Assembly (NCBI RefSeq): GCF_036884655.1
Contig: NC_088340.1
Span: 33,565,001 to 33,629,000 of the forward strand
Source of the DNA: Musa acuminata AAA Group
Taxonomy: Eukaryota; Streptophyta; Magnoliopsida; Zingiberales; Musaceae
Direction of reading: 5' to 3'
Length of the DNA stretch: 64,000 nt
Within the stretch, counting starts at the first letter, position 1. Each line of letters opens with the position of its first letter. A program made the translations under genes and the position numbers. Shown in pieces: positions 9,218-64,000 of this stretch. The notes beneath the pieces were generated by a model that was not told the origin of the DNA, made no database searches, and worked only from the letters and a program-made list of their open reading frames with translations.

Positions 9218-9232
9218 GGACAAGGCTGATTT

Positions 9233-16964: not shown

Positions 16965-16970
16965 CACGAG
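16965..16970 (+). promoter_or_regulatory. Degenerate G-box site of gene copy 1 (cacgag)
   Basis: About 325 bp upstream of the ATG, the position aligned with the perfect CACGTG of copy 2 (38105-38110) reads cacgag here. A bZIP/bHLH G-box is therefore present in one copy only. Regulatory use is inference. Confidence 0.4.
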
Positions 16971-17204: not shown

Positions 17205-17210
17205 TATAAA
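17205..17210 (+). promoter_or_regulatory. TATA box of gene copy 1
   Basis: tataaa within ggctataaaacccggccc lies 90 bp before the ATG at 17295 and is conserved at the same distance in copy 2. Transcription should start near 17235-17240, giving a 5' leader of about 55-60 bases. Confidence 0.75.
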
Positions 17211-17294
17211 ACCCGGCCCACTGGTTCTCCACCATTCTGCATCCACGTCCAACAGTCCAAGAAGACTCCTCGGTAGTAAGTGGAACCGGCACAG

Positions 17295-18983: not shown

Positions 18984-19260
18984 GGCAAAGCAAAGCGTAA
19001 TAATGGGGGCGAGGGCATGAGTGCGAAGCTTGGGTAAAGTATTGCGTGCGTAGTGTCGTTAAGAGCATGTTGGTCATAAGCTACTATTGAACCGGCTGCT
19101 GTGCGGTAAATTTCCTCTCTTAGGTCTCATTTCCTACGTTGTCTTTGGGGTGTCGTAATAGTTGCGAGTGGGTGGCTGTAGTGCCACGATTCTCTCTTCT
19201 CTTCTGTCGAGAAAAATGAATAAGCATCAATAAGAAAGGGATCTATCTAATCCTTTGGTA
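18984..19260 (+). other. 3' untranslated region of copy 1
   Basis: Sequence after the stop is conserved with copy 2 (35785-36061) and includes aatgaataagcatcaataag near 19216, a plausible plant polyadenylation region. The exact end is not determinable here. Confidence 0.5.
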
Positions 19261-19393
19261 ACCTAAAAAATTGGTCGACATTGTTTACTACCCTTTGATG
19301 AGCAAAATCCTGTTTGCAGGCTGTCTCAGCTTTGCCACATCTACGAGTTTAATGAACAAGAAGATATTGTACCACTTTTAAGCTCACCTGTTT

Positions 19394-25045: not shown

Positions 25046-25059
25046 AAGTGGATATATTC

Positions 25060-25440
25060 GGCTCTGAATCAGACCTGGGGACCAAATAAGTTCAGTTCCG
25101 ATTCGAGTCTGGGGGCCGAGTTTATGAGCTCGGTTCCGAATTGAGTTTGGGGACCGAGTTTGTGAGCTCGGCTCCGAATTAAATTTGGGGACCAAGTTGT
25201 GAGCTCGGCTCCGAATTGAGTTTGGGGACTGAGGTGTGAGCTCGGCTCCGAATTGTATCTGGGGACTGAGTTGTGAGCTCGGCTCCAAATAGAATCTAGG
25301 GACCGAGGTGTGAGCTCGAGTCCGAATTGAATCTGGGGACCGAGTTGTGAGCTTGGCTCCGAATTGAACCTGGGGATCGAGTTGTGAGCTCGGCTCCGAA
25401 TTGAACCTGGGGACCGAGCGATTAAGCTCGGTTCCAGTTT
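25060..25440. repeat. 37-bp tandem array, about 10 units
   Basis: The unit is gagctcggctccgaattga followed by atctggggaccgagttgt. Anchors at 25126, 25164, 25201, 25238, 25275, 25312, 25349 and 25386 are 37 or 38 bp apart. gagctc is a palindrome at each unit start. Confidence 0.95.
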
Positions 25441-25690
25441 TGGTGCCAATGGGTCGCTTGTCGAGAGCGAATTGGAGTGACCTGCGAAGAAGATGAACTT
25501 TGGGGCCGAGCGATTAAGCTCGATTCCAGTTTTGGTGTCGGTGAGTCGCCTGTCGGGAGCAAACTAGAGTGACCCGGGCAGAAGATTAACTTGGGGGCTG
25601 AGCGATTAAGCTCGGTTCCAGTTTTGGTGCCGGCGGGTCGCCTGTCGGGAGTGAACTGGAGTGACCGGGGCAGAAGCTGGATTCGGGAGG
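25415..25690. repeat. ~92-bp tandem array, three units
   Basis: gagcgattaagctcg occurs at 25415, 25508 and 25600. Each copy continues with gttccagttttggtg, gggtcgcctgtcgggag and a gagtgacc block. The last unit runs into the 53-bp array. Confidence 0.9.
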
Positions 25691-26090
25691 TGCAGGTCGG
25701 GAACCGATTTGGAGAGGCTCGGGCAAGAGCTGAGCTAGTGAGCCGCTGGTTGAGAATCGATCTGGAGAGGCTCGGGCAAGAGCTGGGCCAACAAGCCGTA
25801 GGTTGGGAGCCAATCTGGAGCGGCTTGGATGAGAGATGGGTCGACGAGCCGTAGGTCGGGAACCTATCTAGAGCGGCTCGGGCAAGAGCTGGGCCTACGA
25901 GCTGCAGGTCGGGAGCCGATCTGGAGCGGCTTAGGCAAGAGCTGGGCCAGCGAGCCGCAAGTCGGGAACCAATCTAGAGATGCTTGGGCAAGAGCTGAGC
26001 TTGCGGGCTGCAGGTCGGGAACCGATCTGGAGCGGCTCGGGCAAGAGCTAGGCCGACGAGGTGCAGGTCGAGAACCGATCTGGAGAGCTG
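25680..26090. repeat. 53-bp tandem array, about 8 units
   Basis: The unit contains gcaggtcgggaaccgatctg, gagcggctcgggcaagagct and gggccgacgagcc. Anchors at 25716, 25769, 25822, 25875, 25928, 25981 and 26034 are exactly 53 bp apart. Confidence 0.95.
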
Positions 26091-26345: not shown

Positions 26346-27230
26346 TTGCCCATGTTCATTTGGACGAACTACACCTATTGGAAGACCCGAATGAGGATCT
26401 TCCTTATTTCCATGGATTTTGAACTTTGGAATATTATCGAAAATGGATTTGAAATGTCTTCTCTTCCAATGAACCATTGGAATGATTTGGAGAAGAAGAC
26501 GTTTTATCTAAATGCAAAGGCTATGAATGCCTTATTTTGCACCTTAGATAAAAATGAATTCAGTCAGGTTTCTTTGTGCGAAACAACTTTTGACATATGG
26601 CACACACTTGAAATCACACACGAAGACACTTCTAGAGTTAAGGATTCAAAAATCAACTTTTTAATGCATGATTTCGAGCTTTTTCGAATGAAGCCAAGCG
26701 AAACCATTGTTGACATGTACACCCATTTTACGGATGTCGTCAATGGCTTAAAAGCACTTGATAAAAATTTTTCAGATTTTGAACTTATAAACAAAATTTT
26801 ACATTCTCTTAATAAGAATTGAGATTTAAAAGTAACGGTAATTCAAGAATCAAATATTTTGAATATATTTCCGATTGAAGAACTAATAGGGTCCTTGATG
26901 ACCTATGAAATGATATTCAATGCACGTAAAGAACTTGAGAACTACCTTCCAAATAATAGGAAGGATTTCAAACTTAGAATATTTGAAGACCACTTGAGCA
27001 TAAGCTCAAGTGATAGTGAATATGAACTCATCACTAATAAATTTAAAAAGTTCATGAAACAAAAATTTAAGAACAAAAAGAACCCAACTACTTGCTTTGA
27101 ACGCAAGAAGAAGAACACAAATTAGGATGAATCGAGCTCCTTCGAAGATGATGAGAAAATCAACAAAGGCGAGATGGCAATCTACGCCTTAACGACTTTC
27201 GTCGATGAGATAATCGAAACCCCCTTAATT
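26346..27230 (+). pseudogene. Copia gag, disabled by stops
   Basis: The 158-codon frame holds YWKTRMRIFLISMDFELWN, then TTFDIWHTLEITHEDTSRV and VNGLKALDKNFSDFELINK, the UBN2 capsid of SIRE-type copia; it is a close relative of the minus-strand gag at 9.6-11 kb. After a TGA at 26820-26822 the same frame resumes with IEELIGSLMTYEMIFNARKE and a Lys-rich stretch ending TAG at 27123-27125. Sequence resembling the gag C-terminal acidic region (DESSSFEDDEK) follows. The zinc knuckle expected after the Lys-rich segment is not intact: only one Cys is seen, at TTCFERKK. Confidence 0.85.
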
Positions 27231-41299: not shown

Positions 41300-41689
41300 T
41301 GGAACTGGAGAAGAAAAAAACGAGATAGAGAGAGTTAGAAAGGAAGAATCTCTCTCTTATTTTTTAAATTATTTTTTTTTATTTTTTATAAGTATTTATA
41401 CTTTTCTTTTCTCTCTCGTTTTTGCATGAGATAACTTTGTCTATTTATGGGTCACATATGAGAGTTACAAAACTCAATTGTTAAGGTTATATTCATATAT
41501 TTTTATCATATATAACCTATCTAATTTATTATTAATTTATTATTTTCATAACCTTTTTTTTTATAGTGATCTTTATTATGGAATAACATCTCTATTCTTA
41601 GAAAGTTCTAGAGTTATAATTGTTTTTTTCCATGTGATCATGAGAGAGATTTCAATTCTCTCTTTTAATTAAGTTTAATTCTCTTAACA
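41300..41689 (-). repeat. Candidate 3' LTR of the second copia element
   Basis: In minus-strand sense, a purine tract aatagaggg directly precedes TGTTAAGAGAATTAAAC at 41689, as expected for polypurine tract plus LTR start. tataaata-type sequences occur downstream (about 41440 and 41393). The far end is uncertain and no second LTR is in the window. Confidence 0.5.
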
Positions 41690-42037
41690 CCCTCTATTAA
41701 ACTTAATTTATTTTTTATCACACATTCCAAATGATTTATTCATCTTAAAAAATGTCTCCAAATTAAAGGACTTGGTGAAAATATATGCAACTTGATCACC
41801 AAATTTATTGTAGTCTAATGGAACTTCCATCTCCTTAATTTGATCACGAATAAAATGATAATGAATATCAATATTCTTGTTTCAATTGTTGAAAGACTTG
41901 ATTACTGAACAATGCAATCGATAACTTGTTATCAACATTAATCTTTATAGCTTGATCTTATGCATAATTGACTTTATTCAAGAGTTTTGTTGGGCATATA
42001 GCATGATAATAAAATGATGATATTGCTATATATTCCG

Positions 42038-42081
<44 letters not shown>

Positions 42082-42990
42082 CACTACAATGGATTGTTTC
42101 TTCAAATACAAAATCAAAATGGTGTCGCCTATATATAAAAAAAAAATCGATGGTACCTTTTTGATCTTCTAGAACTCTACTAAATATAGCCAATAAATAA
42201 AAAATTATTAGAAAATAAATATTATTAACCATGAGTTATGGTACCTTTGATATAATATAAAATTCTTTAATGGCCTTCATATGTGTCTATCTTAGTTCTC
42301 TCATAAATCAGTTTAATAATCAAATTTCATATAAAATATTCAGTCTTAGACAAGTTGAGTATCTCAAGCTTTTTACTGAGCTTTTGAAATGAGTTGGATT
42401 AATTATATCACCATCATTCTGTCTTAAAAGTTTGATATCACATTCAACCAGTGTACCAACTGGTTTATAATTTTTCATCTTAAATCTTTAAAAAACCTTC
42501 TTTGCATATCGTTTTTGTGAAATGAACATACATTATTTATTTTACTCACTTCGATACCAAGGATGTAAAGACAATATCATCTATAAACAAAAATAAGTAA
42601 GATATCTCTAATTTTTGTTTATCTTTTTGTACAAAGTACAATATCATCTATAAAGTGAGTGTTCAAACCTCAAGTGTCACAACTTTAAGAAGTCCTTCAC
42701 ATAAGTCTTTAAATATTATATCACATCATAGTTAATAGTTAAGGTAAATAATCTATCATTTAACATCTTCACCTATGCAATTAAATGATTTGTGTTGTTT
42801 TTAATAAATAATTATTTATCTTTCATATGAATATCATCAAATAATAAATATTTATAAAAAATTAATGACTTTCATCTTTGAATCTTAATATTAAGATGTT
42901 ACCTTTATCTCACCAAAGTAGATTTGTCCATTCCTAGTTTCATCAAACTCTACGAATAAATTTTTGTAATCACACATATGCTTTCTTGCT
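41690..42990 (-). pseudogene. Copia RNase H, RT and protease remnant beside the satellite
   Basis: Minus-strand order from 42990: protease IKWNLDTRARKHMC, then DYKNLFVEFDE and TRNGQIYFGEIKV (42990-42890). A decayed stretch follows with FIDDI near 42580, the RT active-site region. Then come KNYKPVGTLVECDIKL, NPTHFKSSVKSLRYSTC (about 42450-42370), MKAIKEF, and RNase H pieces VDNKLSIAL, then HYHFIRDQIKEMEVPLDYN, then GDQVAYIFTKS (about 41940-41760). The integrase is missing. No frame is open. This is a different copia lineage from the SIRE-type elements. Confidence 0.8.
42039..42080. repeat. TA microsatellite
   Basis: About 20 uninterrupted TA repeats lie inside the decayed RNase H region of the copia remnant. 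Confidence 0.95.
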
Positions 42991-45900
42991 CTAGTGTCCA
43001 AGTTCCACTTGATTTGTATGATGATATTTTTTTCTTTACGGGCTAGTAAGAAAAAAGAATCTTCTTTCTTCTTTACAACTTAATTGTTTTTGTTATAATA
43101 GCATTCATAAGAGTATTGATCATTTTTTTTTTGTAATAATCGCATTCAGCTTTGGAATAATTATACATTTCGCCTCTTATATCTCCTCTTTCTTATTTTT
43201 ATTTTCGATTTTGATCTTTTTTATTATTTCTTTCTCTTTCTCCTTAATCATATCCTCTATGATGACCATAGCCTTTTTCACATCCTTGGCCTTTTCCACA
43301 ACAACGATCACTTGAGCTTTCATTTTTTTCTTTCAAAGTAAGCTTTGAACATATTCCATAACATTTGATTTTTTTTATTGATTAAATATTCATATGCTTA
43401 GAAAGAATCTATTAACTCATTAATAGTCATTTGGTCTAAATTCTTTGAGTAACATAAACTTTTCATGTAGTGATTAAAGTACTTTTTTAATCATATAAAT
43501 ATTTTCAAGATTCTCATTATTTCTTCTTAGTTGATTAACAATAGTAAAAACTTATAAACTAATTACATATATGCTTTCTAGCTCTAGTGTCCAAGTTCCA
43601 TTTGATTTGTATGATGATATTTTCTTCTTTGCGGGCTAGTAAAAAAAAGAATCTTCTTTCTTCTTTTCAACTTAATTATTTTTTTTATAATAGCATTCAC
43701 AAGAGTAATGATCTTTTTTTTTTTTTGTAATAAGCGCATTCAACATTAGAATAATTATACCTATCGCCTCTTATATCTCATCTTTCTTATTTTTATTTTG
43801 GATTTTGATCTTTTTTATTATTTCTTCCTCTTTCTCCTTAATCATATCCTCTATGATGACCACAGCTTCTTTCAAATCCTCGGTCTTTTCCACAACTACG
43901 ATCACTTGAGCTTTCATTTTTTTCTTTCAAAGTAAGCTTTGAACTTATTCCATAGCATTTGATTTTTTTATTTATTAAATATTCATATACTTACAAAGAA
44001 TCTATTAACTGATTAATAATCATTTGATCTAAATTCTTTCAGTAACCAAAACTTTTCATTAGTGATTAAAGTGCATTTTTGATTATACATATATTTTCTA
44101 GATTCTCATTATTTCTTTTTCGTTGACTAATAATAGTAAAAATTTAAAAAAATAATCACACATATGCTTACTAGCTCTAGTGTCCAAGTTCCACATGATT
44201 TGTATGATGATATTTTCTTCTTTACGAGCCAGTAACAAAAAAAATCTTCTTTCTTCTTTTCAACTTAATTGTTTTTGTTATAATAGCATTCACAAAAGTA
44301 ATGATATTTTTTTTTTTGTAATAATCGCATTCAACTTTGGAATAATTATACCTTTCACCTCTTATATCTCCTCTTTCTTATTTTTATTTTGGATTTTGAT
44401 CTTTTTTATTATTTCTTCCTCTTTCTTCTTAATCATATCCTCTATGATGACCATAGCCTCTTTCACATCCTCGGCCTTTTCCACAACCACGATCACTTGA
44501 ACTTTCATTTTTTTTTTTCAAAGTAAGATTTGAACTTATTCCATAGCATTTGATTTTTTTATTGATTAAATATTTATATGCTTACAAAGAATATATTAAC
44601 TCAATAATAGTTATTTGATCTAAATTCTTTGAGTAACCTAAACTTTTTATTTATTGATTAAAGTGCTTTTTTTATCATACATATATTTTCTAGATTCTCA
44701 TTATTTCTTCTTAATTAAATAACAATAGTAAAAACATATAAAACAATCACACATATGCTTACTAGCTCTAGTGTCCAAGTTCCACTTGATTTGTATGATG
44801 ATATTTTCTTCTTTACGGGCTAGTAAGAAAAACGAAACTTCTTTCTTTTTTTCAACTTAATTGTTTTTGTTATAATAGCATTTACAAGAGTAATGATCAT
44901 TTTTTTTTTGTAATATTCGCATTCAACTTTGGAATAATTATACCTTTCGCCTCTTATATCTCCTCTTTCTTATTTTTATTTTGGATTTTGATCTTTTTTA
45001 TTATTTCTTCCTCTTTCTCCTTAATCATATCCTCTATGATGACTATATTCTCTTTCACATCGTCGGCCTTTTCCACAATCACGATCACTTGAGATTTTAT
45101 TTTTTTCTTTCAAAGTGAGCTTTGAACTTATTCCATAGCATTTGATTTTTTAATTGATTAAATATTTATATGCTTACAAAGAATATATTAACTCATTAAT
45201 AGTCATTTGATCTAAATTCTTTGAGTAACCTAAACTTTTCATTTAGGGATTAAAGTGCTTTTTTGATCATACATATATTTTCTAGATTCTCATTATTTCT
45301 TCTTAATTTATTAACAATAGTAAAAACTTATAAAATAATCACACAAATGCTTACTAGCTCTAGTGTCCAAGTTTCACTTGATTTGTATGATGATATTTTC
45401 TTCTTTATGGGCTAGTAATAAAAAAGAATCTTCTTTCTTTTTTTCAACTTAATTGTTTTTGTTATAAAAGCATTCAGAAGAGTAATGATCATTTTTTTTT
45501 AATAATCGCGTTAAACTTTGTAATAATTATACATTTCGCCTCTTATATCTCCTTTTTCTTATTTTTATTTTGGATTTTGATCTTTTTTATTATTTCTTCC
45601 TCTTTCTCCTTAATCATATCCTCTATGATGATCATAGCCTCTTTCAAATCCTCGGCCTTTTCCACAACCACGATCACTTGAACTTTCATTTTTTTCTTTA
45701 AAAGTGAGCTTTGAACTTATTCCATAGCATTTGATTTTTTTATTCATTAAATATTCATATGCTTACAAAGAATCAATTAACTCATTAATAGTCATTTGGT
45801 CTAAATTCTATAAGTAACCTAAATTTTTCATGTAGTGACTAAAGTACTTTTTTGAAAATACATATATTTTCTAGATTCTTATTATTAATACTAAGTTGAT

Positions 45901-48900
45901 TAACAATAGTAAAAACTTATAAAATAATCACACATATGCTTACTAACTCTAGTGTCCAAGTTCCACTTGATTTATATGATGATAATTTCTTCTTTACGGG
46001 CCAGTAAGAAAAAAGAAACTTTGTTTTACTTTTCAACTTAATTGTTTTTGTTATAATAGCATTCACAAGAGTAATGATAATTTTTTTTTTTGTAATAATC
46101 GCATTCAACTTTGGAATAATTATAACTTTCGCGTCTTATAACTCCTTTTTCTTATTTTTATTTTAGATTTTGATCTTTTTTATTATTTCTTCCTCTTTCT
46201 CCTTAATCATATCATCTAAGATGACCATAGCCTCTTTCACATCCTCGGTCTTTTCCACAACCATGATCACTTGAGCTTTCATTTTTTTCTTTCAAAGTGA
46301 GCTTTGAACTTATTCCATAGCATTTGATTTTTTATTGATTAAATATTTATATGCTTACAAAGAATATATTAACTCATTAATAGTCATTTGATCTAAATTC
46401 TTTGAGTAACCTAAACTTTCCATTTAGTGATTAAAGTGCTTTTTTTATCATACATATATTTTCTAGATTCTCATAATTTCTTCTTAATTCATTAACAATA
46501 GTAAAAACTTATAAAATAATCACACATATGCTTACTAGCTCTAGTGTCCAAGTTCCACTTGATTTGTATGATGATATTTTTTTCTTTATGGGGCAGTAAG
46601 AAAAAAGAACCTTTTTTTTTTCAACTTAATTGTTTTTGTTATAATAACATTCACAAGAGTAATAATATTTTTTTTTTTGTAATAATCGCATTCAACTTTG
46701 GAATAATTATACCTTTCGCCTCTTATATCTCCCCTTTCTTATTTTTTATTAGATTTTGATCTTTTTTATTATTTTTCCTCTTTCTCCTTAATCATATCTT
46801 CTTTGATTACAATAGCCTCTTTCACATCCTCGGCCTTTTCTATAACCACGATCACTTGAGCATTCATTTTTTTCTTTCAAAGTGAGCTTTGAACTTATTC
46901 CATAGCATTTGATTTTTTATAGATTAAATATTCATATGCTTACAAAAAATCTATTAACTCATTAATAGTCATTTGGTCTAAATTCTTTGAGTAACATAAA
47001 CTTTTCGTGTAGTGATTATAGTGCTTTTTTAATTATACATATATTTTCTAGATTCTCATAATTTCTTTTAGTTGATTAACAATTATAAAAACTTATAAAA
47101 TAATCACACATATGTTTACTATCTCTAGTGTCATAGTTCCGCTTGATTTGTATGATTATATTTTCTTCTTTAAGGGCTAGTAAGAAAAAAGAATCTTCTT
47201 TCTTTTTTTCAACTAAATTATTTTTGTTATAATAGCATTCAAAAGAGTAATTATCATTTTTTTTTTGTAATAATCGCATTCAACTTTGGAATAATTATAC
47301 CTTTCACCTCTTATATCTCCTCTTTTTTTTTTTTTTGGATTTTGATCTTTTTTATTATTTCTTCCTCTTTCTCCTTAATCATATCCTCTATGATGACCAT
47401 AGCCTCTTTCACATCCTCGGCCTTTTCCACAACCACGATCACTTGAGCTTTCATTTTTTTCTTTCAAAGTGAGCTTTGAACTTATTCCATAGAATTTGAT
47501 TTTTTTTATTTATTAAATATTCATATGCTTACAAAGAATCTATTAACTCATTAATAGTCATTTGGTCTAAATTCTTTGAGTAACCTAAACTTTTCATGTA
47601 GTGATTAAAGTACATTTTTGATCATACATATATTTTTTAGATTCTCATTATTTCTTCTAAGTTGATTAACAATTGTAAAACCTTATAAAATAATCACGCA
47701 TATGTGTACTAACTCTAGTGTCCAAGTTCCACTTGATTTGTATGATAATATTTTCTTTTTTATGGGCTAGAAAGAAAAAAAAAATCTTCTTTCTTCTTTT
47801 CAACTTAATTATTTTTGTTATAATAGTATTCACAAGAGTAATGATCATTTTTTTAAAAAAATAATCACATTCAACTTTGTAATAATTATACATTTCGCCT
47901 CTTATATCTACTCTTTCTCTTTTTTTTTTGGATTTTGATTTTTTTTATTATTTATTCCTCTTTCTCCTTAATCATATCCTCTATGATGACCATAGCCTCT
48001 TTCACATCCTTGGCTTTTTCCACAATCACGATCACTTGCGCTTTCAATTTTTTTTTTCAAAATGAGCTTTGAACTTATTCAATGGCAATTTTTTTTATTG
48101 ATTAAATATACATATGCTTCCTAATAATCTATTAACTCATTAATAGTCATTTGGTCTAAATTTTATGAGTAACCTAAACTTTTTATGTAGTGATTAAAGT
48201 GCTTTTTTGATTATACATATATTTTCTAGATTCTCATTATTTCTTCTTAGTTGATTAACAATAGTAAAAACTTATAAAATAATCACACATATGTTTACTA
48301 GCTCTAGTGTCCAAGTTCCACTTGATTTGTATGATGATATTTTCTTCTTTACGGGCTAGTAAGAAAAAAGAATCTTCTTTCTTCTTTTCAACTTAATTGT
48401 TTCTGTTATAATAGCATTCACAAGAGTAATGATCATTTTTTTTTTGTAATAATCGCATTCACTTTGGAATAATTATACCTTTCGCCTCATATATCTCCTC
48501 TTTCTTATTTTTATTTTTGATTTTGATCGTTTTTATTATTTCTTCCTCTTTATCCTTAATTATATCCTCTATGATGACCATAGCCTCTTTCACATCCTCG
48601 GCCTTTTCCACAACCACGATCATGAGCTTTCATTTTTTTCTTTCAAAGTGAGTTTTGAACTTATTCCATAGTATTTGATTTTTTTATTGATAAATATTCA
48701 TATGCTTACAAAGAATATATTAACTCATTAATAGTCATTTGGTCTAAATTCTTTGAGTAACCGAAACTTTTTATTTAGTGATTAAAGTGCTTTTATTATC
48801 AGACATATATTTTCTAGATTCTCATTATTTTTTCTTAGTTGATTAACAATAGTAAAAACTTATAAAATAATCACACATGCTTACTAGCTCTAGTGGCCAA

Positions 48901-51173
48901 GTTCTAATTGATTTGTATGATTATATTTTCTTCTTTACGGGCTAGTTAGAAAAAAGAATCTTCTTTCTTCTTTTCAACTTAATTGTTTTTGTTATAATAG
49001 CATTCATAAGAGTAATGATCATTTTTTTTTGTAATAATCGTATTAAACTTTGGAATAATTATACCTTTCGCCTCTTATATCTCCTCTTTCTTATTTTTAC
49101 TTTGGATTTTGATCTTTTTATTATTTCTTCCTCTTTCTCCTTAATCATATCCTCTATGATAATTATAGCCTCTTTCACATCCTCGGCCTTTTCCACAACC
49201 ACGATCACATGAGCTTTCATTTTTTTCTTTCAAAGTGAGCTTGAAACTTATTCCATAGCATTTGATTTTTTTATTGATTAAATATTCATATGCTTATAAA
49301 GAATCTTTTAACTCATTAATAGTAATTTGGTCTAAATTTTTTGAGTAACCTAAACTTTTCATGTAGTGATTAAAGTACTTTTATGATCATATATATATTT
49401 TCTAAATTCTTATTATTTCTTCTTAGTTGATTAACAATAGTAAAAACTTATATAATAATCACACATATGCTTACTAGCTATAGTGTCCAAATTCCACTAG
49501 ATTTGTATGATGATATTTTCTTCTTTACGGGCTAGTAAGAAAAAAGAATCTTATTTCGTCTTTTCAACTTAATTATTTTTGTTATAATAGCATTCGCAAG
49601 AGTAATGATCATTTTTTTTTTAATAATCACATTCAACTTTGGAATAATTATACCTTTCGCCTCTTATATCTCCTTTTTTTTTTTTTTTTTGAATTTTGAT
49701 ATTTTTTATTATTTCTTCCTCTTTCTCCTTAATCATATCCTCTATGATGACCAAAGCCTCTTTCACATCGTTGGCCATTTCTAAAACCACGATCACTTGA
49801 GCTTTAATTTTATTCTTTCAAAATGAGCTTTTAACTTATTCCATAACATTTGATTTTTTTATTGATTAAATATTCATATGCTTAAAGTGATTTTTTGATC
49901 ATACATATATTTTATAGATTCTCATTATTTCTTTTTAGTTGATTCACAATAGTAAAAACTTATAAAATAATCACACATATGCTTACTAGCTCTAGTGTCC
50001 AAGTTCCACTTGATTTGTGTAATGATATTTTCTTTTTTACGGGCTAGTAAGAAAAACAAATCTTCTTTCTTTTTTTCAACTTAATTGTTTTTGTAATAAT
50101 AGTATTTAGTAAAGTAATGATCATTTTTTTTTGTAATAATCACATTCAACTTTGGAATAATTATACCTTTCGCCTTTTATATCTCCTCTTTCTTATTTTT
50201 ATTTTGGATTTTAATCTTTTTTATTATTTCTTTCTCTTTCTCCTTAATCATATCCTCTATGATGACCATGGCCTCTTTCACATCCTCGGGTTTTTCCACA
50301 ACCACGATCACTTGAGCTTTTGTTTTTTTCTTTCAAAGTGTGCTTTCAACTTATTCCACATCATTTGATTTTTTTATTGATTAAATATTCATATGCTTAA
50401 AAAAAATCTATTAAAATCATTAATAGTCATTTGGTCTAAATTCTTTGAGTAACCTAAACTTTTCATTTAGTGATTAAAGTGCTTTTTTGATCATACATAT
50501 ATTTTATAGATTCTCATTATTTCTTCTTAATTAAATAACAATAATAAAAACATATAAAACAATCACACATATGCTTACTAGCTCTAGTATCCAAGTTCCA
50601 CTTGATTTGTATGATGATATTTTCTTCTTTACGGGCTAGTAAGAAAAACGAAACTTCTTTCTTTTTTTCAACTTAATTGTTTTTGTTATAATAGCATTCA
50701 TAAGAGTAATGATATATTTTTTTGTAATAATCGCATTCAAACTTGGAATAATTATACATTTCGCCTCTTATATCTCCTCTTTTTATTTTTATTTTGGATT
50801 TTGATATTTTTTTGTTATTTCTTTCTTTTTCTCCTTAATCATATCCTCTATGATAACTATAACCTCTTTCACATCCTCGGCCTTTTCCACAACCATGATC
50901 ACTTGAGCTTTCATTTTTTTCTTTCAAAGTGAGCTTTGAACTTATTCCACAGCATTTGATTTTTTTATTGATTAAATATTCATATGCTTACAAAGAATCT
51001 ATTAACTCATTAATAGTCATTTGGTTTAAATACTTTGAGTAAACTAAACTTTTCATGTAGTGATTAAAATGCTTTTTTTATCATACATATATTTTCTAGA
51101 TTCTCATTATTTCTTCTTAGTTGATTAACAATAGTAAAAACTTATAAAATAATCAAACGTATGCTTACTATCT
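42991..51173 (-). repeat. Satellite subfamily A (14 units)
   Basis: Diagnostic variants: tagctctagtgtcc, ctttacgggctagtaag, tcaaagtgagctttgaac, taaatattcatatgc. Unit length is mostly 584-593 bp. One unit (49480-49991) is 512 bp because of a ~78-bp deletion near 49882. Units are noticeably more divergent from one another than those of subfamily B. Confidence 0.85.
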
Positions 51174-54100
51174 CTAGTGTCCAGGTTCCACTTGATTTGT
51201 ATTATGATATTTTTTCTTTATTAGCTAGTAAGAAAAAAGAATCTTCTTTCTTTTTGTCAACTTAATTTTTTTTATTATAATAGCATTCACAAGAGTGATG
51301 ATCATTTTTTTTTTGTAATAATCACATTCAGTTTTGGAATAATTATACCTTTAACCTCTTATATCTACTCTTTCTTATTTTTATTTTCGATTTTGATCTT
51401 TTTATTATTTCTTCCTCTTTCTCCATAATCATATCCTCTATGATGACCATAGCCTCTTTCACATCCTCGGCCTTTTCCCCATCCACAATCACTTGAGCTA
51501 ACATTTTTTTCTTTCAAATTTAGCTTTTAACTTATTCCATAGCATTTGATTCTTTTATTGATTAAACACTAATATGCTTACAAAGAATCTATCAACTCAT
51601 TAATAGTCATTAGGTCTAAATTCTTTGAGTAACCTAAACTTTTCATGTAGTAATTAAAGTGCTTTTTTTATCATACATATATTTTCTAGATTCTCATTAT
51701 TTCTTCTAAATTGATTAACAATAGTAAAAACTTATAAAATAATCACACATATGCTTACTATCTCTAGTGTCCAAGTTCCACTTGATTTGTATGATGATAT
51801 TTTCTTCTTTATTAGCTAGTAAGAAAAAAGAATCTTATTTCTTTTTTTCAACTTAATTTTTTTTATTATAATAGCATTCACAAGAGTGATGATTATTATT
51901 TTTTTGTAATAATCGCATTCAGCTTTAGAATAATTATACCTTTCGCCTCTTATATCTCCTCTTTCTTATTTTTATTTTCGATTTTGATCTTTTTATTATT
52001 TCTTCCTCTTTCTCCTTAATCATATCCTCTTTGATGACCATAGCCTCTTTCACATCCTCGGCCTTTTCCACAACCACGATCACTTGAGCTATCATTTTTT
52101 TCTTTCAAATTTTGCTTTGAACTTATTCCATAGCATTTGATTCTTTTATTGATTAAACATTAATATGCTTACAAATTATCTATCAACACATTAATAGTCA
52201 TTTTGTCTAAATTCTTTAAGTAACCTAAACTTTTCATGTAGTAATTAAAGTGCTTTTTTGATCATATATATATTTTCTAGATTCTCATTATTTCTTCTTA
52301 GTTGATTAACAATAGTAAAAACTTATAAAATAATCACACATATGCTAACTATCTCTAGTGTCTAATTTTCACTTGATTTGTATGATGATATTTTCTTATT
52401 TATTAGCTAGTAAGAAAAAAGATTCTTCTTTCTTCTTTTCAACTTAATTTTTTTTATTATAATAGCATTCACAAGAGTGATGATCATTATTTTTTTGTAA
52501 TAATCGCATTCAGCTTTGGAATAATTATACCTTTCGCCTCTTATATCTCCTCTTTCTTATTTTTATTTTCGATTTTGATCTTTTTATTATTTCTTCCTCT
52601 TTCTCCTTAATCATATCCTCTTTGATGACCATAGCCTCTTTCACATCCTCGGCCTTTTCCACAACCACGATCACTTGAGCTATCATTTTTTTCTTTCAAA
52701 TTTAGCTTTGAACTTATTCCTTAGCATTTGATTATTTTATTGATTAAACATTAATATGCTTACAAAGAATCTATCAACTCATTAATAGTCATTTGGTCTA
52801 AATTCTTTTAGTAAGCTAAACTTTTCATGTAGTTATTAAAGTGCTTTTTTTATCATACATATATTTTCTAGATTCTCATTATTTCTTCTTAATTGATTAA
52901 CAATAGTAAAAACTTATAAAATAATCACACATATGCTAACTATCTCTAGTGTCCAAGTTCCACTTAATTTGTATGATGATATTTTCTTCTTTATTAGCTA
53001 GTAAGAAAAAAGAATCTTATTTCTTCTTTTCAACTTAATTTTTTTTATTATAATAGCATTCACAAGAGTGATGATTATTATTTTTTTGTAATAATCGCAT
53101 TTAGCTTTGGAATAATTATACCTTTCGCCTCTTATATCTCCTCTTTCTTATTTTTATTTATGATTTTGATCTTTTTATTATTTTTTCTTCTTTCTCCTAA
53201 ATCATATCCTCTATGATAATCATAGCCTCTTTCACATCCTCGGCCTTTTCCACAACCACGATCACTTGAGCTAACATTTTTTTCTTTCAAATTTAGCTTT
53301 AAACTTATTCCATAGCATTTCATTCTTTTATTGATTAAACATTAATATGCTTACAAAGAATCTATCAACTCATTAATAGTCATTTGGTCTAAATTCTTTG
53401 AGTAACCTAAACTTTTCATGTATTAATTAAAGTGCTTTTTTGATCATACATATATTTTCTAGATTCTCATTATTTCTTCTTAGTTGATTAACAATATTAA
53501 AAACTTATAAAATAATCACACATATGGTAACTATCTCTATTGTACAAGTTCCACTTGATTTGTATGATGATATTTTCTTCTTTATAAGCTAGTAAGAGAG
53601 AAGAATCTTTTTTCTTCTTTTCAACTTAATTTTTTTTATTATAATAGCATTCACAAGAGTGATGATTATTATTTTTTTGTAATAATCGCATTTAGCTTTA
53701 GAATAATTATACCTTTCGCTTCTTATATCTCCTCTTTCTTATTTTTATTTTCGATTTTGATCTTTTTATTATTTCTTCCGCTTTCTCCTTAATCATATCC
53801 TCTATGATGACCAGAGCCTCTTTCACATCCTCGGCCTTTTTCACAACCACGATCACTTGAACTATCATTTTTTTCTTTCAAATTTTGCTTTGAACTTATT
53901 CCATAGCATTTGATTCTTTTATTGATTAAACATTAATATGCATACAAAGAATCTATCAACTCATTAATAGTCATTTGGTCTAATTTCTTTAAGTAATCTA
54001 AACTTTTCATGTAATAATTAAAGTGCATTTTTTATCATACATATATTTTCTAGATTCTCATTATTTCTTCTTAGTTGATTAACAATAGTAAAAACTTATA

Positions 54101-57100
54101 AAATAATCACACATATGCTAACTATCTCTAGTGTCTAAGTTTCACTTGATTTGTTTGATGATATTTTCTTCTTTATTAGCTAGTAAGAAAAAAGAATCTT
54201 ATTTCTTCTTTTCAACTTAATTTTTTTTATTATAATAGCATTCACAAGAGTGATGATCATTATTTTTTTGTAATAATCGCATTCAACTTTGGAATAATTA
54301 TACCTTTCGCCTCTTATATCTCCTCATTCTTATTTTTATTTTCGATTTTGATCTTTTTATTTTTTCTTCCTCTTTCTCCTTAATTATATCCTCTTTGATG
54401 ACCATAGCCTCTTTCACATCCTCGGCCTTTTCCACAACCATGATCACTTGAGCTATCATTTTTTTCTTTCAAATTTAGCTTTGAACTTATTCTATAGCAT
54501 TAGATTCTTTTATTTATTAAACATTAATATGCTTACAAAGAATAGTCATTTGATCTAAATTCTTTGAGTAACCTAAACTTTTCATGTAGTAATTAAAGTG
54601 CTTTTTTGATCATACATATATTTTCTAAATTCTCATTATTTCTTCTTAGTTGATTAACAATAGTAAAAACTTATAAAATAATCACACATATGCTAACTAT
54701 CTCTAGTGTCCAAGTTCCACTTGATTTGTATGATAATATTTTCTTCTTTATTAGCTAGTATGAAAAAAGAATCTTATTTCTTCTTTTCAACTTAATTTTT
54801 TTTATTATAATAGCATTCACAAGAGTGATGATTATTATTTTTTTGTAATAATCGCATTTAGATTTGGAATAATTATACCTTTCGCCTCTTGTATCTCCTC
54901 TTTCTTATTTTTATTTACGATTTTGATCTTTTTATTATTTCTTACTCTTTCTCCTTAATCATATCCTCTATGATAACCATAGCCTCTTTCACATCCTCGG
55001 CCTTTTCCACAACCATGATCACTTGAGCTATCATTTTTTTCTTTCAAATTTTGCTTTGAACTTATTCCATAGCATTTGATTCTTTTATTGATTAAACATT
55101 AATATGCTTACAAAGAATCTATCAACTCATTAATAGTCATTTGGTTTAAATTCTTTAAGTAACCTAATCTTTTCATGTAGTAATTAAAGTGCTTTTTTGA
55201 TTATACATATATTTTCTAGATTCTCATTATTTCTTCTTAGTTGATTAACAAAAGTAAAAACTTATAAAATAATCACACATATGCTAACTATCTCTAGTGT
55301 CCAAGTTCCACTTGATTTGTATGATTATATTTTATTCTTTTTTAGCTAGTAAGAAAAAAGAATCTTATTTCTTCTTTTCAACTTAATTTTTTTTATTATA
55401 ATAGCATTCACAAGAGTGATGATCATTATTTTTTTGTAATAATCGCATTCAGCTTTTGAATAATTATACCTTTCGCCTCTTATATCTCCTCTTTCTTATT
55501 TTTATTTTCGATTTTGATCTTTTTATTATTTCTTCCTCTTTCTCCTTAATCAGATCCTCTTTGATGACCAGAGCCTCTTTCATATCCTCGGCCTTTTCTA
55601 CAACCACGATCACTTGAGCTATCATTTTTTTCTTTCAAATTTAGCTTTGAACTTATTTCATAGCATTTGATTCTTTTATTGATTAAACATTAATATGCTT
55701 ACAAAGAATCTATCCACTCATTAATAGTCATTTGGTCAAAATTCTTTGAGTAACCTAAACTTTTAATGTATTAATTAATTACTTTTTTGATCATACATAT
55801 ATTTTCTAGATTCTCATTATTTCTTCTTAGTTGATTAACAATAGTAAAAACTTATAAAATAATCACACATATGCTGACTATCTCTAGTGTCCAAGTTCCA
55901 CTTGATTTGTATGATGATCTTTTCTTTTTTCTTAGCTAGTAAGAAAAAAGAATCTTCTTTCTTCTTTTCAACTTAATTTTTTTTATTTTATTAGCATTCA
56001 CAAGAGTGATGATCATTATTTTTTTATAATAATCGCATTCAGCTTTGGAATAATTATACATTTCGCCTCTTATATCTCCTCTTTCTTATTTTTATTTTCA
56101 ATTTTGATCTTTTTATTATTTCTTCCTTTTTCTCCTTATTCATATCCTCTATGATAATTATAGCCTCTTTCATATCCTCGGCCTTTTCCACAACCACGAT
56201 CACTTGAGCTATCATTTTTTTCTTTCAAATTTAGCTTTTAACTTATTCCATAGCATTTGATTCTTTTATTGATTAAACACTAATATGCTTACAAAGAATC
56301 TATCAACTCATTAATAGTCATTAGGTCTAAATTCTTTGAGTAACCTAAACTTTTCATGTAGTAATTAAAGTGCTTTTTTTATCATACATATATTTTCTAG
56401 ATTCTCATTATTTCTTCTTAGTTGATTAACAATAGTAAAAACTTATAAAATAATCACACATATGCTTACTATCTCTAGTGTCCAAGTTCCATTTGATTTG
56501 TATGATGATATTTTCTTCTTTATTAGCTAGTAAGAAAAAAGAATCTTATTTCTTCTTTTCAACTTAATTTTTTTTATTATAATAGCATTCACAAGAGTGA
56601 TAATCATTATTTTTTTATAATAATCGCATTCAGCTTTGGAGTAATTATACATTTCGCCTCTTATATCTCCTCTTTTTTATTTTTATTTTTGATTTTGATC
56701 TTTTTATTATTTCTTCCTCTTTCTCCTTAATCATATCCTCTATGATGACCATAGCCTCTTTCACATCCTCGGCCTTTTTCACAATCACGATCACTTGAAC
56801 TATCATTTTTTTCTTTCAAATTTTGCTTTGAACTTATTCCATAGCATTTGATTCTTTTATTGATTAAACATTAATATGCATACAAAGAATCCATCAACTC
56901 ATTAATAGTCATTTGGTCTAAATTCTTTAAGTAACCTAAACTTTTCATGGAATAATTAAAGTACATTTTTGATCATACATATATTTTCTAGATTCTCATT
57001 ATTTCTTCTTAGTTGATTAACAATAGTAAAAACTTATAAAATAATCACACATATGCTAACTATCTCTAGTGTCTAAGTTTCACTTGATTTGTTTGATGAT

Positions 57101-60100
57101 ATTTTCTTCTTTATTAGCTAGTAAGAAAAAAGAATCTTTTTTCTTCTTTTCAACTTAATTTTTTTTGTTATAATAGCATTCACAAGAGTGATGATCATTA
57201 ATTTTTTGTAATAATCGCATTCAGCTTTGAATAATTATACCTTTCGCCTCTTATATCTCCTCTTTCTTATTTTTATTTTCGATTTTGATCTTTTTATTAT
57301 TTCTTCCTCTTTCTCCTTAATCAGATCCTCTTTGATAACCAGAGCCTCTTTCACATTCTCAACCTTTTCCACAACCACGATCACTTGAGCTATCATTTTT
57401 TTCTTTCAAATTTAGCTTTGAACTTATTCCATAGCATTTGATTCTTTTATTGATTAAACATTAATATGCTTACAAAGAATCTATCAACTCATTAATAGTC
57501 ATTTGGTCTAAATTTCTTTAAATAACCTAAACTTTTCATGTAGTAATTAAAATGCTATTTTGATCATACATATATTTTCTAGATTCTCATTATTTCTTCT
57601 TATTTGATTAACAATAATAAAAACTTATAAAATAATCACACATATGGTAACTATCTCTAGTGTCCAAGTTCCACTTGATTTGTTTGATGATATTTTCTTC
57701 TTTATTAGCTAGTAGGAAAAAAGAATCTTATTTCTTCTTTTCAACTTAATTTTTTTTATTATAATATCATTCACAAGAGTGATGATTATTATTATTTTGT
57801 AATAATCGCATTTAGCTTTGGAATAATTATACCTTTCGCCTCTTATATCTCCATTTTCTTATTTTTATTTTCAATTTTGATCTTTTTATTATTTCTTCCT
57901 CTTTCTCCTTAATCGTATCCTCTATGATAACCATAGCCTTTTTCACATCCTCGGCCTTTTCCACAACCACGATCACTTGAGCTATCATTTTTTTCTTTCA
58001 AATTTTGCTTTGAACTTATTACATAGCATTTGATTCTTTTATTGATTAAACATTAATTCGCTTACAAAGAATCTATCAACTCATTAATAGTCATTTGGTC
58101 TAAATTCTTTCAGTAACCTAAACTTTTAATGTATTAATTAAAGTAATTTTTTGATCATACATATATTTTCTAGATTTTCAATATTTCTTCTTAGTTGATT
58201 AACAATTGTAAAAACTTATAAAATAATCACACATATGCTTACTATCTCTAGTGTCTAAGTTTCACTTGATTTGTATGATGATCTTTTCTTCTTTATTAGC
58301 TAGTAAGAAAAAAGAATCTTCTTTCTTTTTTTCAAATTAATTTGTTTTATTATATTAGCATTCACAAAAGTGATGATTATTATTTTTTTGTAATAATCGC
58401 ATTTAGCTTTGGAATAATTATACCTTTCGCCTCTTGTATCTCCTCTTTCTTATTTTTATTTACGATTTTGATCTTTTTATTATTTCTTCCTCTTTCTCCT
58501 TAATCATATCCTCTATGATGACCATAGCCTCTTTCACATCCTCTGCTTTTTCCACAACCACGATCACTTAAGCTATCATTTTTTTCATTCAAATTTTGCT
58601 TTGAACTTATTCCATGGCATTTGATTCTTTTATTGATTAAACATTAATATGCTTACAAAGAATCTATCAACTCATTAAAAGTCATTTGGTCTAAATTTTT
58701 TGAGTAACATAAACTTTTCATGTAGTAATTAAAGTACTTTTTTGATCATACATATATTTTCTAGATTCTCATTATTTCTTCTTAATTGATTAACAATAGT
58801 AAAAACTAATAAAATAATCACACTTATGCTAACTATCTCTAGTGTCTAAGTTCCACTTGATTTGTACGATGATATTTTCTTATTTATTAGCTAGTAAGAA
58901 AAGAGAATCTTATTTCTTCTTTTCAACTTAATTTTTTTTATTATAATAGCATTCACAAGAGTGATGATCTTTAATTTTTTGTAATAATCGCATTTAGCTT
59001 TGGAATAATTATACCTTTCGCCTTTTATATCTCCTCTTTCTTATTTTTATTTTCGATTTTGATCTTTTTATTATTTCTTCCTCTTTCTACTTAATTATAT
59101 CCTCTTTGATGACCATAGCCTCTTTCACATCCTCGGCCTTTACCACAACCACGATCACTTGAGCTATCATTTTTTTCTTTCAAATTTAGCTTTGAACTTA
59201 TTCCATAGCATTTGATTCTTTTATTGATTAAACGTTAATATGCTTACAAAGAATCTATCAACTCATTAATAGTCATTTGGTCTAAATTCTTTAAGTAACC
59301 TAAACTTTTCATGTAGTAATTAAATTGCTTTTTTGATCAGACACATATTTTCTAGATTCTCATTATTTCTTCTTAGTTGATTAACTATAGTAAAAAATTA
59401 TAAAATAATCACACATATGCTTACTATCTCTAGTGTCTATGTTCCACTTGATTTGTATGATAATATTTTCTTCTTTATTAGCTAGTAAAAAAAATGAATC
59501 TTCTTTCTTCTTGTCAACTTAATTTTTTTTATTATAATAGTATTCACAAGAGTGATGATCATTTTTTTTTTGTTATAATCGCATTTAGTTTTGGAATAAT
59601 TATACCTTTAACCTCTTATATCTACTCTTTCTTATTTTTATTTTCGATTTTAATCTTTTTATTATTTCTTCCTCTTTCTCCTTAATCATATCCTCTATGA
59701 TAATCATAGCCTCTTTCACATCCTCGGCCTTTTCCACAACCACGATCACTTGAGCTATCATTTTTTTATTTCAAATTTAGCTTTGAACTTATTCCATAGC
59801 ATTTCATTCTTTTATTGATTAAACATTAATATGCTTACAAAGAATCTATCAACTCATTAATAGTCATTTAATCTAAATTATTTGAGTAACCTAAACTTTT
59901 AATGTATTAATTAAAGTACTTTTTTAATCATACATATATTTTCTAGATTCTCAATATTTCTTCTTAGTTGATTAAAAATAGTAAAAACTTATAATATAAT
60001 CACACATATGCTTACTATCTCTAGTGTCTAAGTTTCACTTGATTTGTATTATGATCTTTTCTTCTTTATTAGCTAGTAAGAAAAACGAATCTTCTTTCTT

Positions 60101-63100
60101 CTTTTCAACTTAATTTGTTTTATTATATTAGCATTCACAAGAGTGATGATCATTATTTTTTTATAATAATCGCATTTAGCTTTGGAATAATTATACATTT
60201 CGCCTCTTATATCTCCTCTTTCTTATTTTTATTTTTGATTTTGATCTTTTTATTATTTCTTCCTCTTTCTCCTTAATCATATCCTCTATGATGACCATAG
60301 CCTCTTTCACATCGTCGGCCTTTTCTACAATCACGATCACTTGAGCTATCATTTTTTTCTTTCAAATTTAGCTTTGAACTAATTTCATAGCATTTGATTC
60401 TTTTATTGATTAAACATTAATATACTTACAAAGAATCTATCAACTCATTAATAGTCATTTGGTCAAAATTCTTTGAGTAACCTAAACTTTTAATGTATTA
60501 ATTAAAGTACTTTTTTTATCATACATATATTTTCTAGATTCTCATTATTTCTTCTTGGTTCATTAACAATAGTAAAAACTTATAAAATAATCACACATAT
60601 GCTTACTATCTCTATTGTCCAAGTTCCACTTGATTTGTGTGATGATCTTTTCTTCTTTACTAGCTAGTTAGAAAAAAGAATCTTCATTCTTCTTTTCAAC
60701 ATAATTTTTTTTATTATAATAGCATTCACAAGAGTGATGACTATTATTTTTTTGTAATAATCGCATTTATCTTTGGAATAATTATACCTTTCACCTCTTG
60801 TATCTTCTCTTTCTTATTTTTATTTACGATTTTGATCTTTTTATTATTTCTTCCTCTTTCTCCTTAATCATATCCTCTATGATGACCATAGCCTCTTTCA
60901 CATCCTCGGCCTTTTCCACAACCACGATCACCAGAGCTATAATTTTTTTCTTTCAAATTTTGCTTTGAACTTATTCCATAGCATTTGATTCTTTCATTAA
61001 TTAAACATTAATATGCTTACAAAGAATCTATCAACTCATTAATAGTCATTTGGTCTAAATTCTTTAAGTAACCTAAACTTTTTATGTAGTAATTAAAGTG
61101 CTTTTTTGATCATACATATATTTTCTAGATTCTCATTATTTCTTCTTAGTTGATTAATAATAGTAAAAACTTATAAAATAATCACACATATGTTAACTAT
61201 CTCTAGTGTCTAAGTTTCACTTGATTTGTATGATGATATTTTTTCTTTATTAGCTAGTAAGAAAAAAGAATCTTCTTTCTTTTTTTCAACTTAATTTTTT
61301 TTATTATAATAGCATTCACAAGAGTGATGATCATTATTTTTTTGTAATAATCGCATTCAGCTTTGGAATAATTATACCTTTCGCCTCTTATATCTCCTCT
61401 TTCTTATTTTTATTTTCGATTTTGATCTTTATATTATTTCTTCCTATTTCTCCATAATCAGATCCTCTTTGATGACCAAAGCCTCTTTCACATCCTCGGC
61501 CTTTTCCACAACCACGATCACTTGAGCTATCGTTTTTTTCTTTCAAATTTAGCTTTGAACTTATTCCATAGCATTTGATTCTTTTATTGATTAAACATTA
61601 ATATGCTTACAAAGAATCTATCAACTCATTAATAGTCATTTGGTCTAAATTTTTGAGTAACATTAACTTTTAATGTATTAATTAAAGTACTTTTTTGATC
61701 ATACATATATTTTCTAGATTCTCATTATTTCTTCTTGGTTGATTAACAATAGTAAAAACTTATAAAATAATCACACATATGCTAACTATCTCTAGAGTCT
61801 AAGTTTCACTTGATTTGTTTGATGATATTTTCTTCTTTATTAGCTAGTAAGAAAAAAGAATCTTGTTTCTTCTTTTCAACTTAATTTTTTTTATTATAAT
61901 AGCATTCACAAGAGTGATGATCATTAATTTTTTTGTAATAATCGAATTCAACTTTGGAATAATTATACCTTTCGCCTCTTATATCTCCTCTTTCTTATTT
62001 TTATTTTCAATTTTGATCTTTTTATTTTTTCTTCCTCTTTCTTCTTAATTATATCCTCTTTGATGACCATAGCCTATTTCATATCCTCGGCCTTTTCCAC
62101 AACCACGATCACTTGAGCTATCATTTTTTTCTTTCAAATTTAGCTTTGAACTTATTCTATAGCAATTGATTATTTTATTAATTAAACATTAATATGCTTA
62201 CAAAGAATCTATCAACTCATTAATAGTCATTTGGTCTAAATTCTTTGAGTAACCTAAACTTTTCATGAAGTAATTAAAGTGCTTTTTTGATCATACATAT
62301 ATTTTCTAGATTCTCATTATTTCTTCTTAGTTGATTAACAATAGTAAAAACTTGTAAAATAATCACACATATGCTAACTATCTCTAGTGTCCAAGTTCCA
62401 CTTGATTTGTATGATAATATTTTCTTCTTTATTAGCTAGTAAGAAAAAAGAATCTTATTTCTTCTTTTCAACTTAATTTTTTTTTTTATAATAGCATTCA
62501 CAAGTGTGATGATCATTATTTTTTTGTGATAATCGCATTTAGCTTTGGAATAATTATACCTTTCGCCTCTTGTATCTCCTCTTTCTTATTTTTATTTACG
62601 ATTTTGATCTTTTTATTATTTCTTCCTCTTTCTCCTTAATCATATCCTCTATTATGACCATAGCCTCTTTCACATCCTCGGCCTTTTCCACAACCACGAT
62701 CAATTAAGCTATCATTTTTTTCATTCAAATTTTGCTTTGAACTTATTCAATTACATTTGATTCTTTTATTGATTAAACATTAATATGCTACAAAGAATCT
62801 ATCAACTCATTAATAGTCATTTGGTCTAAATTCTTTGAGTAACCTAAACTTCTCATGTTGTAATTAAAGTGCTTTTTTGATCATACATATATTTTCTAGA
62901 TTCTCATTTTTTCTTCTTAGTTGATTAACAATAGTAAAAACTTATAAAATAATCACACATATGCTAACTATCTCTAGTGTCTTATTTTCACTTTATTAGC
63001 TAGTAAGAAAAAAGAATCTTCTTTATTCTTTTCAACTTAATTTTTTTTATTATAATAGCATTCACAAGTGTGATGATGATTATTTTTTTGTAATAATCGC

Positions 63101-64000
63101 ATTCAGCTTTGGAATAATTATACCTTTCGCCTCTTATAACTCCTCCTTCTTATTTTTATTTTCGATTTTGATCTTTTTATTATTTCTTCCTCTTTCTCCT
63201 TAATTAGATCCTCTTTGTTGACCATAGCCTCTTTCACATCCTCGGCCTTTTCCATAACCACGATCACTTGAGCTATCATTTTTTTCTTTCAAATTTAGCT
63301 TTAAACTTATTCCATAGCATTTGATTCGTTTATTGATTAAACATTAATATGCTTACAAAGAATTTATCAACTCATTAATAGTCATTTGGTCTAAATTCTT
63401 TGAGTAACCTAAACTTTTCATGTTGTAATTAAAGTGTTTTTTTGATCATACATATATTTTCTAGATTCTCATTTTTTCTTCTTAGTTGATTAACAATAGT
63501 AAAAACTTATAAAATAATCACACATATGCTAACTATCTCTAGTGTCTTATTTTCACTTGATTTGTATGATGATATTTTCTTCTTTATTAGCTAGTAAGAA
63601 AAAAGAATCTTTTTTCTTCTTTTCAACTTAATTTTTTTTATTATATTAGCATTCACAAGAGTGATGATCATTATTTTTTTATAATAATCGCATTCAGCTT
63701 TGGAATAATTATACATTTCGCCTCTTATATCTCCTCTTTCTTATTTTTATTTTTGATTTTGATCTTTTTATTATTTCTTCCTCTTTCTCCTTATTCATAT
63801 CCTCTTTGATGACCATAGCCTCTTTCACATCCTCGGCCTTTTCTACAACCACGATCACTAGAGATATCATTTTTTTCTTTCAAATTTTGCTTTGAACTTA
63901 TTCCATAGCATTTGATTATTTTATTGATTAAACATTAATATGCTTACAAAGAATCTCTCAACTCATTAATAGTCATTTGGTCTAAATTCTTTTAGTAACC
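51174..64000 (-). repeat. Satellite subfamily B (21 units and a partial)
   Basis: Diagnostic variants: actatctctagtgt, ctttattagctagtaag, tcaaatttagctttgaac or tcaaattttgctttgaac, taaacattaatatgc, and tttttttattataatagc. Spacing is 590-592 bp for nearly all units; exceptions are 54127-54702 (576) and 62974-63538 (565). The switch from A to B is abrupt at about 51.15-51.2 kb. Confidence 0.85.

What the first reader, a model, noticed from the sequence alone, without database searches (positions are those of the whole stretch)
42991..64000. A 21-kb satellite made from a piece of copia gag-protease
Seen: 35 full ~591-bp units and one partial in tandem, each reading on the minus strand as the gag C-terminus, a basic/zinc-knuckle segment and the start of the aspartic protease (WNLDTRASKHMC, where the copia consensus is LDTGASNHM). 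Known: satellites sometimes arise from retroelement parts, but mostly from LTRs or untranslated regions. Inference: an internal coding fragment of a copia element was amplified into a satellite. Using coding gag-protease DNA as the monomer is unusual, and I do not know a described plant satellite of this composition.
Basis: partly seen in the sequence, partly recalled or inferred. Interest (0 to 1): 0.9.

Follow-up and report, generated by a model that had tools for sequence, protein, structure and literature searches.

The report
Tandem array grown in dead copia
A piece of a dead plant jumping gene (part of its coat-protein and protease genes) has been copied head-to-tail at least 36 times, apparently where it lay, a well-preserved example of a known route by which genomes make new repetitive DNA.

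Summary
From 42967 to the window end lie 36 head-to-tail units of about 591 bp (35 end inside the window, three of them shortened; the last is cut), mean pairwise identity 0.915. On the minus strand they read as a Ty1/copia gag C-terminus, RG-rich segment, broken zinc knuckle and protease start. Gag homology is firm (P0003, label PF14223, E 1.5e-15; units 64.7 bits versus 25.8 for the best of 300 shuffles). The array has not left its parent: at 42967 the first unit runs on into protease, while the other 35 junctions run on into gag; an RNase H end and a putative LTR follow in element order. So it most likely expanded in place inside a dead copia element. It was probably not coding when amplified: four stops (31-34 of 36 units each) and a frameshift spacing (32 of 36) are shared. 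Two blocks meet at 51171/51172, the one beside the parent slightly more gag-like. Gag-derived plant satellites are in print. Copy number elsewhere could not be tested: the genome search did not complete. New member of a known kind; modest interest.

The parts
42967..64000 (-). Tandem array, 36 units of about 591 bp derived from copia gag C-terminus to protease start; still running at the window end
42989..51171 (-). Block A, units u01-u14: mean identity 0.913, on average more gag-like, next to the parent element
51172..64000 (-). Block B, units u15-u36: mean identity 0.939; 20 diagnostic columns separate it from block A
42967..42971 (-). GATTA at the array edge: last bases shared by the protease flank and the unit-to-unit junctions; putative microhomology of the founding duplication (inferred)
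   Evidence: gag relatives carry S-D-Y-F at this place in 3 of 4; the single-copy gag side lies outside the window
42894..43157 (-). Stretch crossing the array edge (P0002, X at two stops), broken zinc knuckle into protease; Pol_BBD PF22936 at 26.9 bits (cut-off 27), E 6.3e-6
42894..42966 (-). Protease continuation outside the array, found only here by tblastn
42549..42608 (-). Possible RT remnant, by recalled motif only; no profile support
41720..41881 (-). RNase H C-terminal remnant (name by recall), 34% identical over 53 residues to 958-800, which lies downstream of another copia protease in the window
   Evidence: (E 8.6e-5)
41300..41689 (-). Putative 3' LTR beginning TGTTAAGAG after a purine-rich tract; its far end is not defined (recalled LTR features; partner LTR not in window)

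Best explanation
A Ty1/copia element inserted here in minus orientation and decayed: stops and a frameshift in gag, integrase and most of reverse transcriptase lost or no longer recognisable. Inside the dead element a stretch of about 591 bp, from the gag Asp-Tyr-Phe site to the protease His-Met-Cys-Asp-Tyr site, was duplicated in tandem, probably by mis-joining at a short shared GATTA. The tandem pair then grew to at least 36 copies, probably block A beside the surviving protease first and block B later from one derived unit. It encodes nothing; it is non-coding repeat DNA that grows and shrinks by recombination or re-replication. Shown: unit origin, continuity with the parent at one edge, shared disablements, two blocks. 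Inferred: the microhomology step, the order of events, the amplification mechanism, and that the other edge is also in the parent.
For: Gag origin: a query read through from block-A frames and the flank finds P0003, E 1.5e-15, label PF14223; five further PF14223 relatives; P0003 hits the units at up to 64.7 bits, best of 300 shuffles 25.8; P0007 also covers the frame-shifted RG segment. Protease: P0002, raw window sequence crossing the array edge, Pol_BBD E 6.3e-6. In place: at 36 of 36 unit ends the ATATGTGTGATTA site is found; 1, at the edge, continues as protease, 35 continue as gag (25 exactly TTTTATAAGT, 10 near variants); RNase H end at 41881-41720 in element order. Dead before amplification: stops in 34, 31, 33 and 34 of 36 units and the same frame-breaking spacing in 32 of 36. 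Blocks: within A 0.913, within B 0.939, between 0.897, 20 diagnostic columns; A more gag-like than B with three references, p 0.018, 0.030, 0.021 (34 of 36 units, u12 and u36 dropped). Junction: S-D-Y-F in 3 and S-N-Y-F in 1 of the 4 gag relatives reaching that site, of 6 aligned.
Against: The right edge, gag N-terminus and 5' LTR lie beyond 64000. Pfam finds no gag in the units directly, and a consensus-based query found none of 99 candidates at E 1e-3. Pol_BBD is 0.1 bit below its cut-off, and P0003 itself scores 25.6 against a cut-off of 27 for PF14223. No RT or integrase domain was detected in the flank. Within each block similarity does not fall with distance, not what step-by-step neighbour duplication alone would give. 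Block A and B scores overlap widely and the test treats related units as independent.
Confidence: 0.85

Rival explanations
1. A true dispersed satellite family of copia gag-protease origin, amplified elsewhere (for example through extrachromosomal circles) and present in many arrays; this window shows one of them, by chance or by homology next to a copia remnant.
For: At least 21 kb of similar units; no distance-similarity relation within blocks, as burst amplification would give; genome copy number untested.
Against: The protease reads on through the array edge; block A, beside the parent, is on average more gag-like than block B; the consensus finds no second unit or array in 1-42966, only matches of 52 bp or less.
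Confidence: 0.12
2. The first repeats arose during reverse transcription (template switching), so the element inserted already carrying tandem gag-protease units, as hypothesised for Ogre 3' UTR repeats, and expanded later.
For: Vondrak et al. (PMC7004042, passages) describe arrays inside LTR elements that expand, and cite strand transfer during replication as a hypothesis.
Against: Nearly all units share stops and a frameshift, so the duplicating element could have moved only with borrowed proteins. Sister elements could not be searched, so this is untested.
Confidence: 0.12
3. Assembly or sequencing artefact that multiplied one copia fragment.
For: Variants seen once are transversion-rich (80 to 177) while commoner ones are not (56/66, 25/17, 13/13), which errors could produce.
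Against: 327 of 591 positions vary among units and the units fall into two blocks with 20 diagnostic columns; a collapsed or duplicated read would not give that.
Confidence: 0.03
4. The repeats encode a repeat protein under selection.
For: Plus-strand frames of 104-107 codons are open in u03, u13 and u14.
Against: The longest minus-strand frame per unit is 47-77 codons, with 10-27 stops in each minus frame; no plus-strand frame exceeds 75 codons in block B.
Confidence: 0.01

Closest known systems
Wheat/rye centromeric 250-bp repeat similar to Cereba (Ty3/gypsy) gag (Cheng and Murata 2003; not read, seen only as described in PMC3648361 and PMC9659126)
   Same: Plant tandem repeat derived from an LTR-element gag coding segment.
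   Different: Ty3/gypsy, centromeric, 250 bp, linked to a CAA microsatellite; here Ty1/copia, 591 bp, gag to protease, still joined to the parent; chromosomal place unknown.
Rye E3900 satellite with a partial gag reading frame (as described in PMC9659126 and PMC3648361)
   Same: Gag fragment within a tandem unit.
   Different: Said there to derive from a Ty3-gypsy element; here the whole unit is one contiguous copia segment.
Lathyrus sativus Ogre-derived satellites (PMC7004042, passages)
   Same: Arrays embedded in LTR elements that expand.
   Different: Pre-existing short tandem repeats in the 3' UTR of Ogre; here a gag-protease segment.
Maize CRM1TR and CRM4TR (PMC3648361, passages and section 13)
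   Same: Tandem repeats entirely derived from LTR elements, locally homogenised.
   Different: Built from LTR and UTR of centromeric gypsy elements.
Wheat TaeSat15-620 (PMC10827815, passages)
   Same: 620-bp satellite, 90% copia-derived.
   Different: Matches a copia LTR, not gag-protease.

Membership tests
Ty1/copia LTR retrotransposon (parent) | copia-type gag (PF14223) | tested here: met
   Via P0003 and five relatives labelled PF14223; direct Pfam scans of unit translations gave no gag hit
Ty1/copia LTR retrotransposon (parent) | protease next to gag (Pol_BBD) | tested here: inconclusive
   26.9 bits against cut-off 27, E 6.3e-6
Ty1/copia LTR retrotransposon (parent) | integrase before reverse transcriptase before RNase H | tested here: inconclusive
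   No integrase or RT domain found; RNase H-like end present and in order, E 8.6e-5 to 958-800 of the window
Ty1/copia LTR retrotransposon (parent) | two LTRs and target-site duplication | not testable with these tools
   Only the putative 3' LTR start is in the window
Satellite DNA | long head-to-tail array of similar monomers | tested here: met
   36 units, 21 kb in the window, mean identity 0.915
Satellite DNA | block-wise homogenisation | tested here: met
   Two blocks, 20 diagnostic columns
Satellite DNA | high copy number, heterochromatic or multi-locus | not tested
   Own-genome search unanswered 14 times (last); FISH not possible
Gag-derived plant satellites (wheat/rye) | unit derived from gag coding sequence | tested here: met
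Gag-derived plant satellites (wheat/rye) | derived from Ty3/gypsy | tested here: not met
   Gag relatives carry the copia-type label PF14223

The most novel reading that the evidence does not exclude
A satellite caught at birth: one locus that preserves the founding junction (GATTA in protease joined to the same letters in gag), the surviving parent element, an older block beside it and a younger burst beyond it, made from already dead gag-protease DNA by break repair or re-replication with error-prone synthesis, which would also explain the transversion-rich private changes (177 of 257).
Probability: 0.12. Interest if true: 0.55.

Novelty: new member of a known kind. Interest (0 to 1): 0.3.

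Why it matters
New satellites are usually seen long after their origin. Here the array is still joined to its parent, one edge is readable to the base, and the monomer was most likely a pseudogene when it was amplified. That gives a testable case for satellites arising from transposon graveyards and for a founding duplication at a few bases of shared sequence. It does not show a new kind of element or a function.

Tried and rejected
Direct Pfam, NCBIfam and PDB scans of unit translations gave no gag hit; weak hits (P2X, PAW, OspC, eL19, Sm D1) were judged chance. A consensus-based protein query found nothing at E 1e-3; a block-A-based query with a limit of 10 did. Searches of viral contigs by protein and by protease motif gave no copia; the genome-contig motif scan gave one match, in an Actinoplanes record, taken as chance and not used. 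Higher-order repeats: no lag significant in block B (largest |z| 2.68, threshold 2.94); in block A the largest |z| was 2.58, with no threshold computed. Functional repeat protein: rejected on stops. A unit-like match at 41333-41383 (80.8% over 52 bp, E 4e-5) was set aside as a pyrimidine-rich tract, by inspection only. Passages of PMC6444444 showed no gag-derived satellite. The copia lineage and the plant species could not be assigned.

Full report
Observation. A profile of one unit (44175-44765) finds 36 head-to-tail matches from 42989 to 64000. Thirty-five units end inside the window (u12 is 512 bp, u20 575, u35 567, the other 32 are 584-593) and the last is cut at 464 bp. Over all 36, mean pairwise identity is 0.915 (range 0.860-0.970). 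Homology to the left flank begins at 42967. Tandem Repeats Finder, which looks for periods up to 500, did not list it. Its quoted WNLDTRASKHMC is exact in 6 of 36 units, all in block A.

What the unit is. On the minus strand the units read, across shifting frames, as a gag C-terminus, an RG-rich stretch, a broken CCHC knuckle and the start of a protease. Pfam does not see gag in these broken frames, and a consensus-based protein search found none of 99 candidates at E 1e-3. A read-through query made from block-A frames and the flank found one protein among 134 candidates at a limit of 10: P0003, E 1.5e-15 in a database of 5.8 billion, label PF14223, copia-type gag. Its own score for that model is 25.6 bits, just under the cut-off of 27. 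A search with P0003 returned six proteins including itself, all labelled PF14223, one of them from Sesamum latifolium. P0003 matches the units in tblastn at up to 64.7 bits (E 7e-16); the best of 300 shuffled versions reached 25.8. It also matches two other copia gag remnants in the window, of which 10136-10633 is PF14223 by Pfam. P0007 covers the RG segment in its shifted frame too. The protease part is supported by P0002, raw window sequence 43157-42894 with X at two stops, at 26.9 bits for Pol_BBD (cut-off 27, E 6.3e-6).

The array is joined to its parent. P0002 crosses the array edge: its last 24 residues lie outside the array and continue the protease. A recognisable ATATGTGTGATTA site lies at all 36 unit ends (up to 3 mismatches). 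At u01, the edge, it is followed by CAAAAATTTA, protease; at the other 35 it is followed by gag sequence, exactly TTTTATAAGT in 25 and near variants in 10. Further along the minus strand come a stretch with a recalled RT-like motif (42608-42549, no profile support) and an RNase H-like C-terminus at 41881-41720 that is 34% identical over 53 residues (E 8.6e-5) to 958-800. That place lies downstream of a copia Pol_BBD (62.1 bits) and gag_pre-integrs at 3795-3286 on the same strand; that both belong to one element is my inference, and the ORF between them that I scanned (1483-1157) had no Pfam hit at E 0.01. A putative 3' LTR begins at 41689 (by recalled features). Integrase and RT domains were not found. 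The order is that of one decayed copia element in minus orientation whose gag-protease region has been multiplied.

It was probably dead before it multiplied. Two of the stops stand opposite sense residues of P0003; the other two were not set against a relative. Across 36 units the four stops are present in 34, 31, 33 and 34, and the same frame-breaking spacing in 32. Common ancestry of these defects is the simplest reading, although conversion between units could also have spread them.

How it grew. The units form two blocks that meet at 51171/51172: u01-u14 (A, mean identity 0.913) and u15-u36 (B, 0.939), 0.897 between them, with 20 diagnostic columns. Block A scores on average as more gag-like against three references (p 0.018, 0.030, 0.021; u12 and u36 left out; P0011 from residue 91 on). 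The ranges overlap and related units are not independent, so this is only suggestive. Over the whole array a unit's nearest relative lies 7.7 units away against 12.3 (s.d. 1.3) at random, but within blocks similarity does not fall with distance and no higher-order period stands out. Block-wise bursts or wide shuffling fit better than neighbour-by-neighbour duplication alone. The founding step is inferred: protease HMC-DY and gag S-DY-F share the Asp-Tyr codons (S-D-Y-F in 3, S-N-Y-F in 1 of the 4 gag relatives that reach the site; 2 start later), and the flank and units part right after GATTA. The single-copy gag side of that site lies outside the window, so a microhomology-mediated tandem duplication is likely but not shown.

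An oddity. Changes seen in one unit only are 80 transitions to 177 transversions; changes in 2-3, 4-9 and 10-18 units are 56/66, 25/17 and 13/13, and four in-window controls are 8/0, 37/32, 117/80 and 203/91. Fisher p is 5e-19 against 203/91 and 0.001 against 37/32; the other two were not tested. Sequencing or assembly error could produce this, and base composition differs between the sets; error-prone repair synthesis is the more interesting but less likely cause.

Known or new. A review lists gag reading frames as sources of satellites in wheat relatives and rye (PMC9659126, passages; also PMC3648361, passages and section 13). A 2025 review states that satellites arise from LTR, gag or pol segments and proposes TE graveyards as a source (PMC12628747, passages). 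Expansion of arrays inside LTR elements is described for Ogre in Lathyrus (PMC7004042, passages). A wheat satellite of 620 bp is 90% copia LTR (PMC10827815, passages). I saw no satellite of copia gag-protease in the listings of eight searches of one open-access library, which lacks most subscription papers. So this is a new member of a known kind.

Limits. The own-genome search did not complete (14 tries, last), so copy number, other loci, the right edge and the species are unknown.

Noticed in passing
16959-19393 and 38116-35649: Inverted duplicate of about 2.5 kb, 94.8% identical; an ORF piece of one copy matches PEP_mutase PF13714 at 23.2 bits, below its cut-off of 31.5.
   Followed up: partly
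3959-9587: LTR-like direct repeats 97.7% identical (3959-4299, 9247-9587) around long ORFs between 4820 and 9217 that look like Ty3/gypsy (by eye); the 8 differences between the repeats are all transitions.
   Followed up: partly
24124-26087: GC-rich tandem repeats with periods 58, 59, 37, 92 and 53/159 bp side by side.
   Followed up: no
42967-64000: Private changes of single units are transversion-rich (80 transitions, 177 transversions), unlike commoner variants and in-window controls.
   Followed up: partly
42039-42080: A run of AT dinucleotides inside the dead copia element.
   Followed up: no
800-3795, 10439-10672 and 26424-26930: Remnants of other copia elements: Pol_BBD and gag_pre-integrs at 3286-3795, copia gag and zinc knuckle at 10136-10633 by Pfam, gag by tblastn at 26424-26930.
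   Followed up: partly
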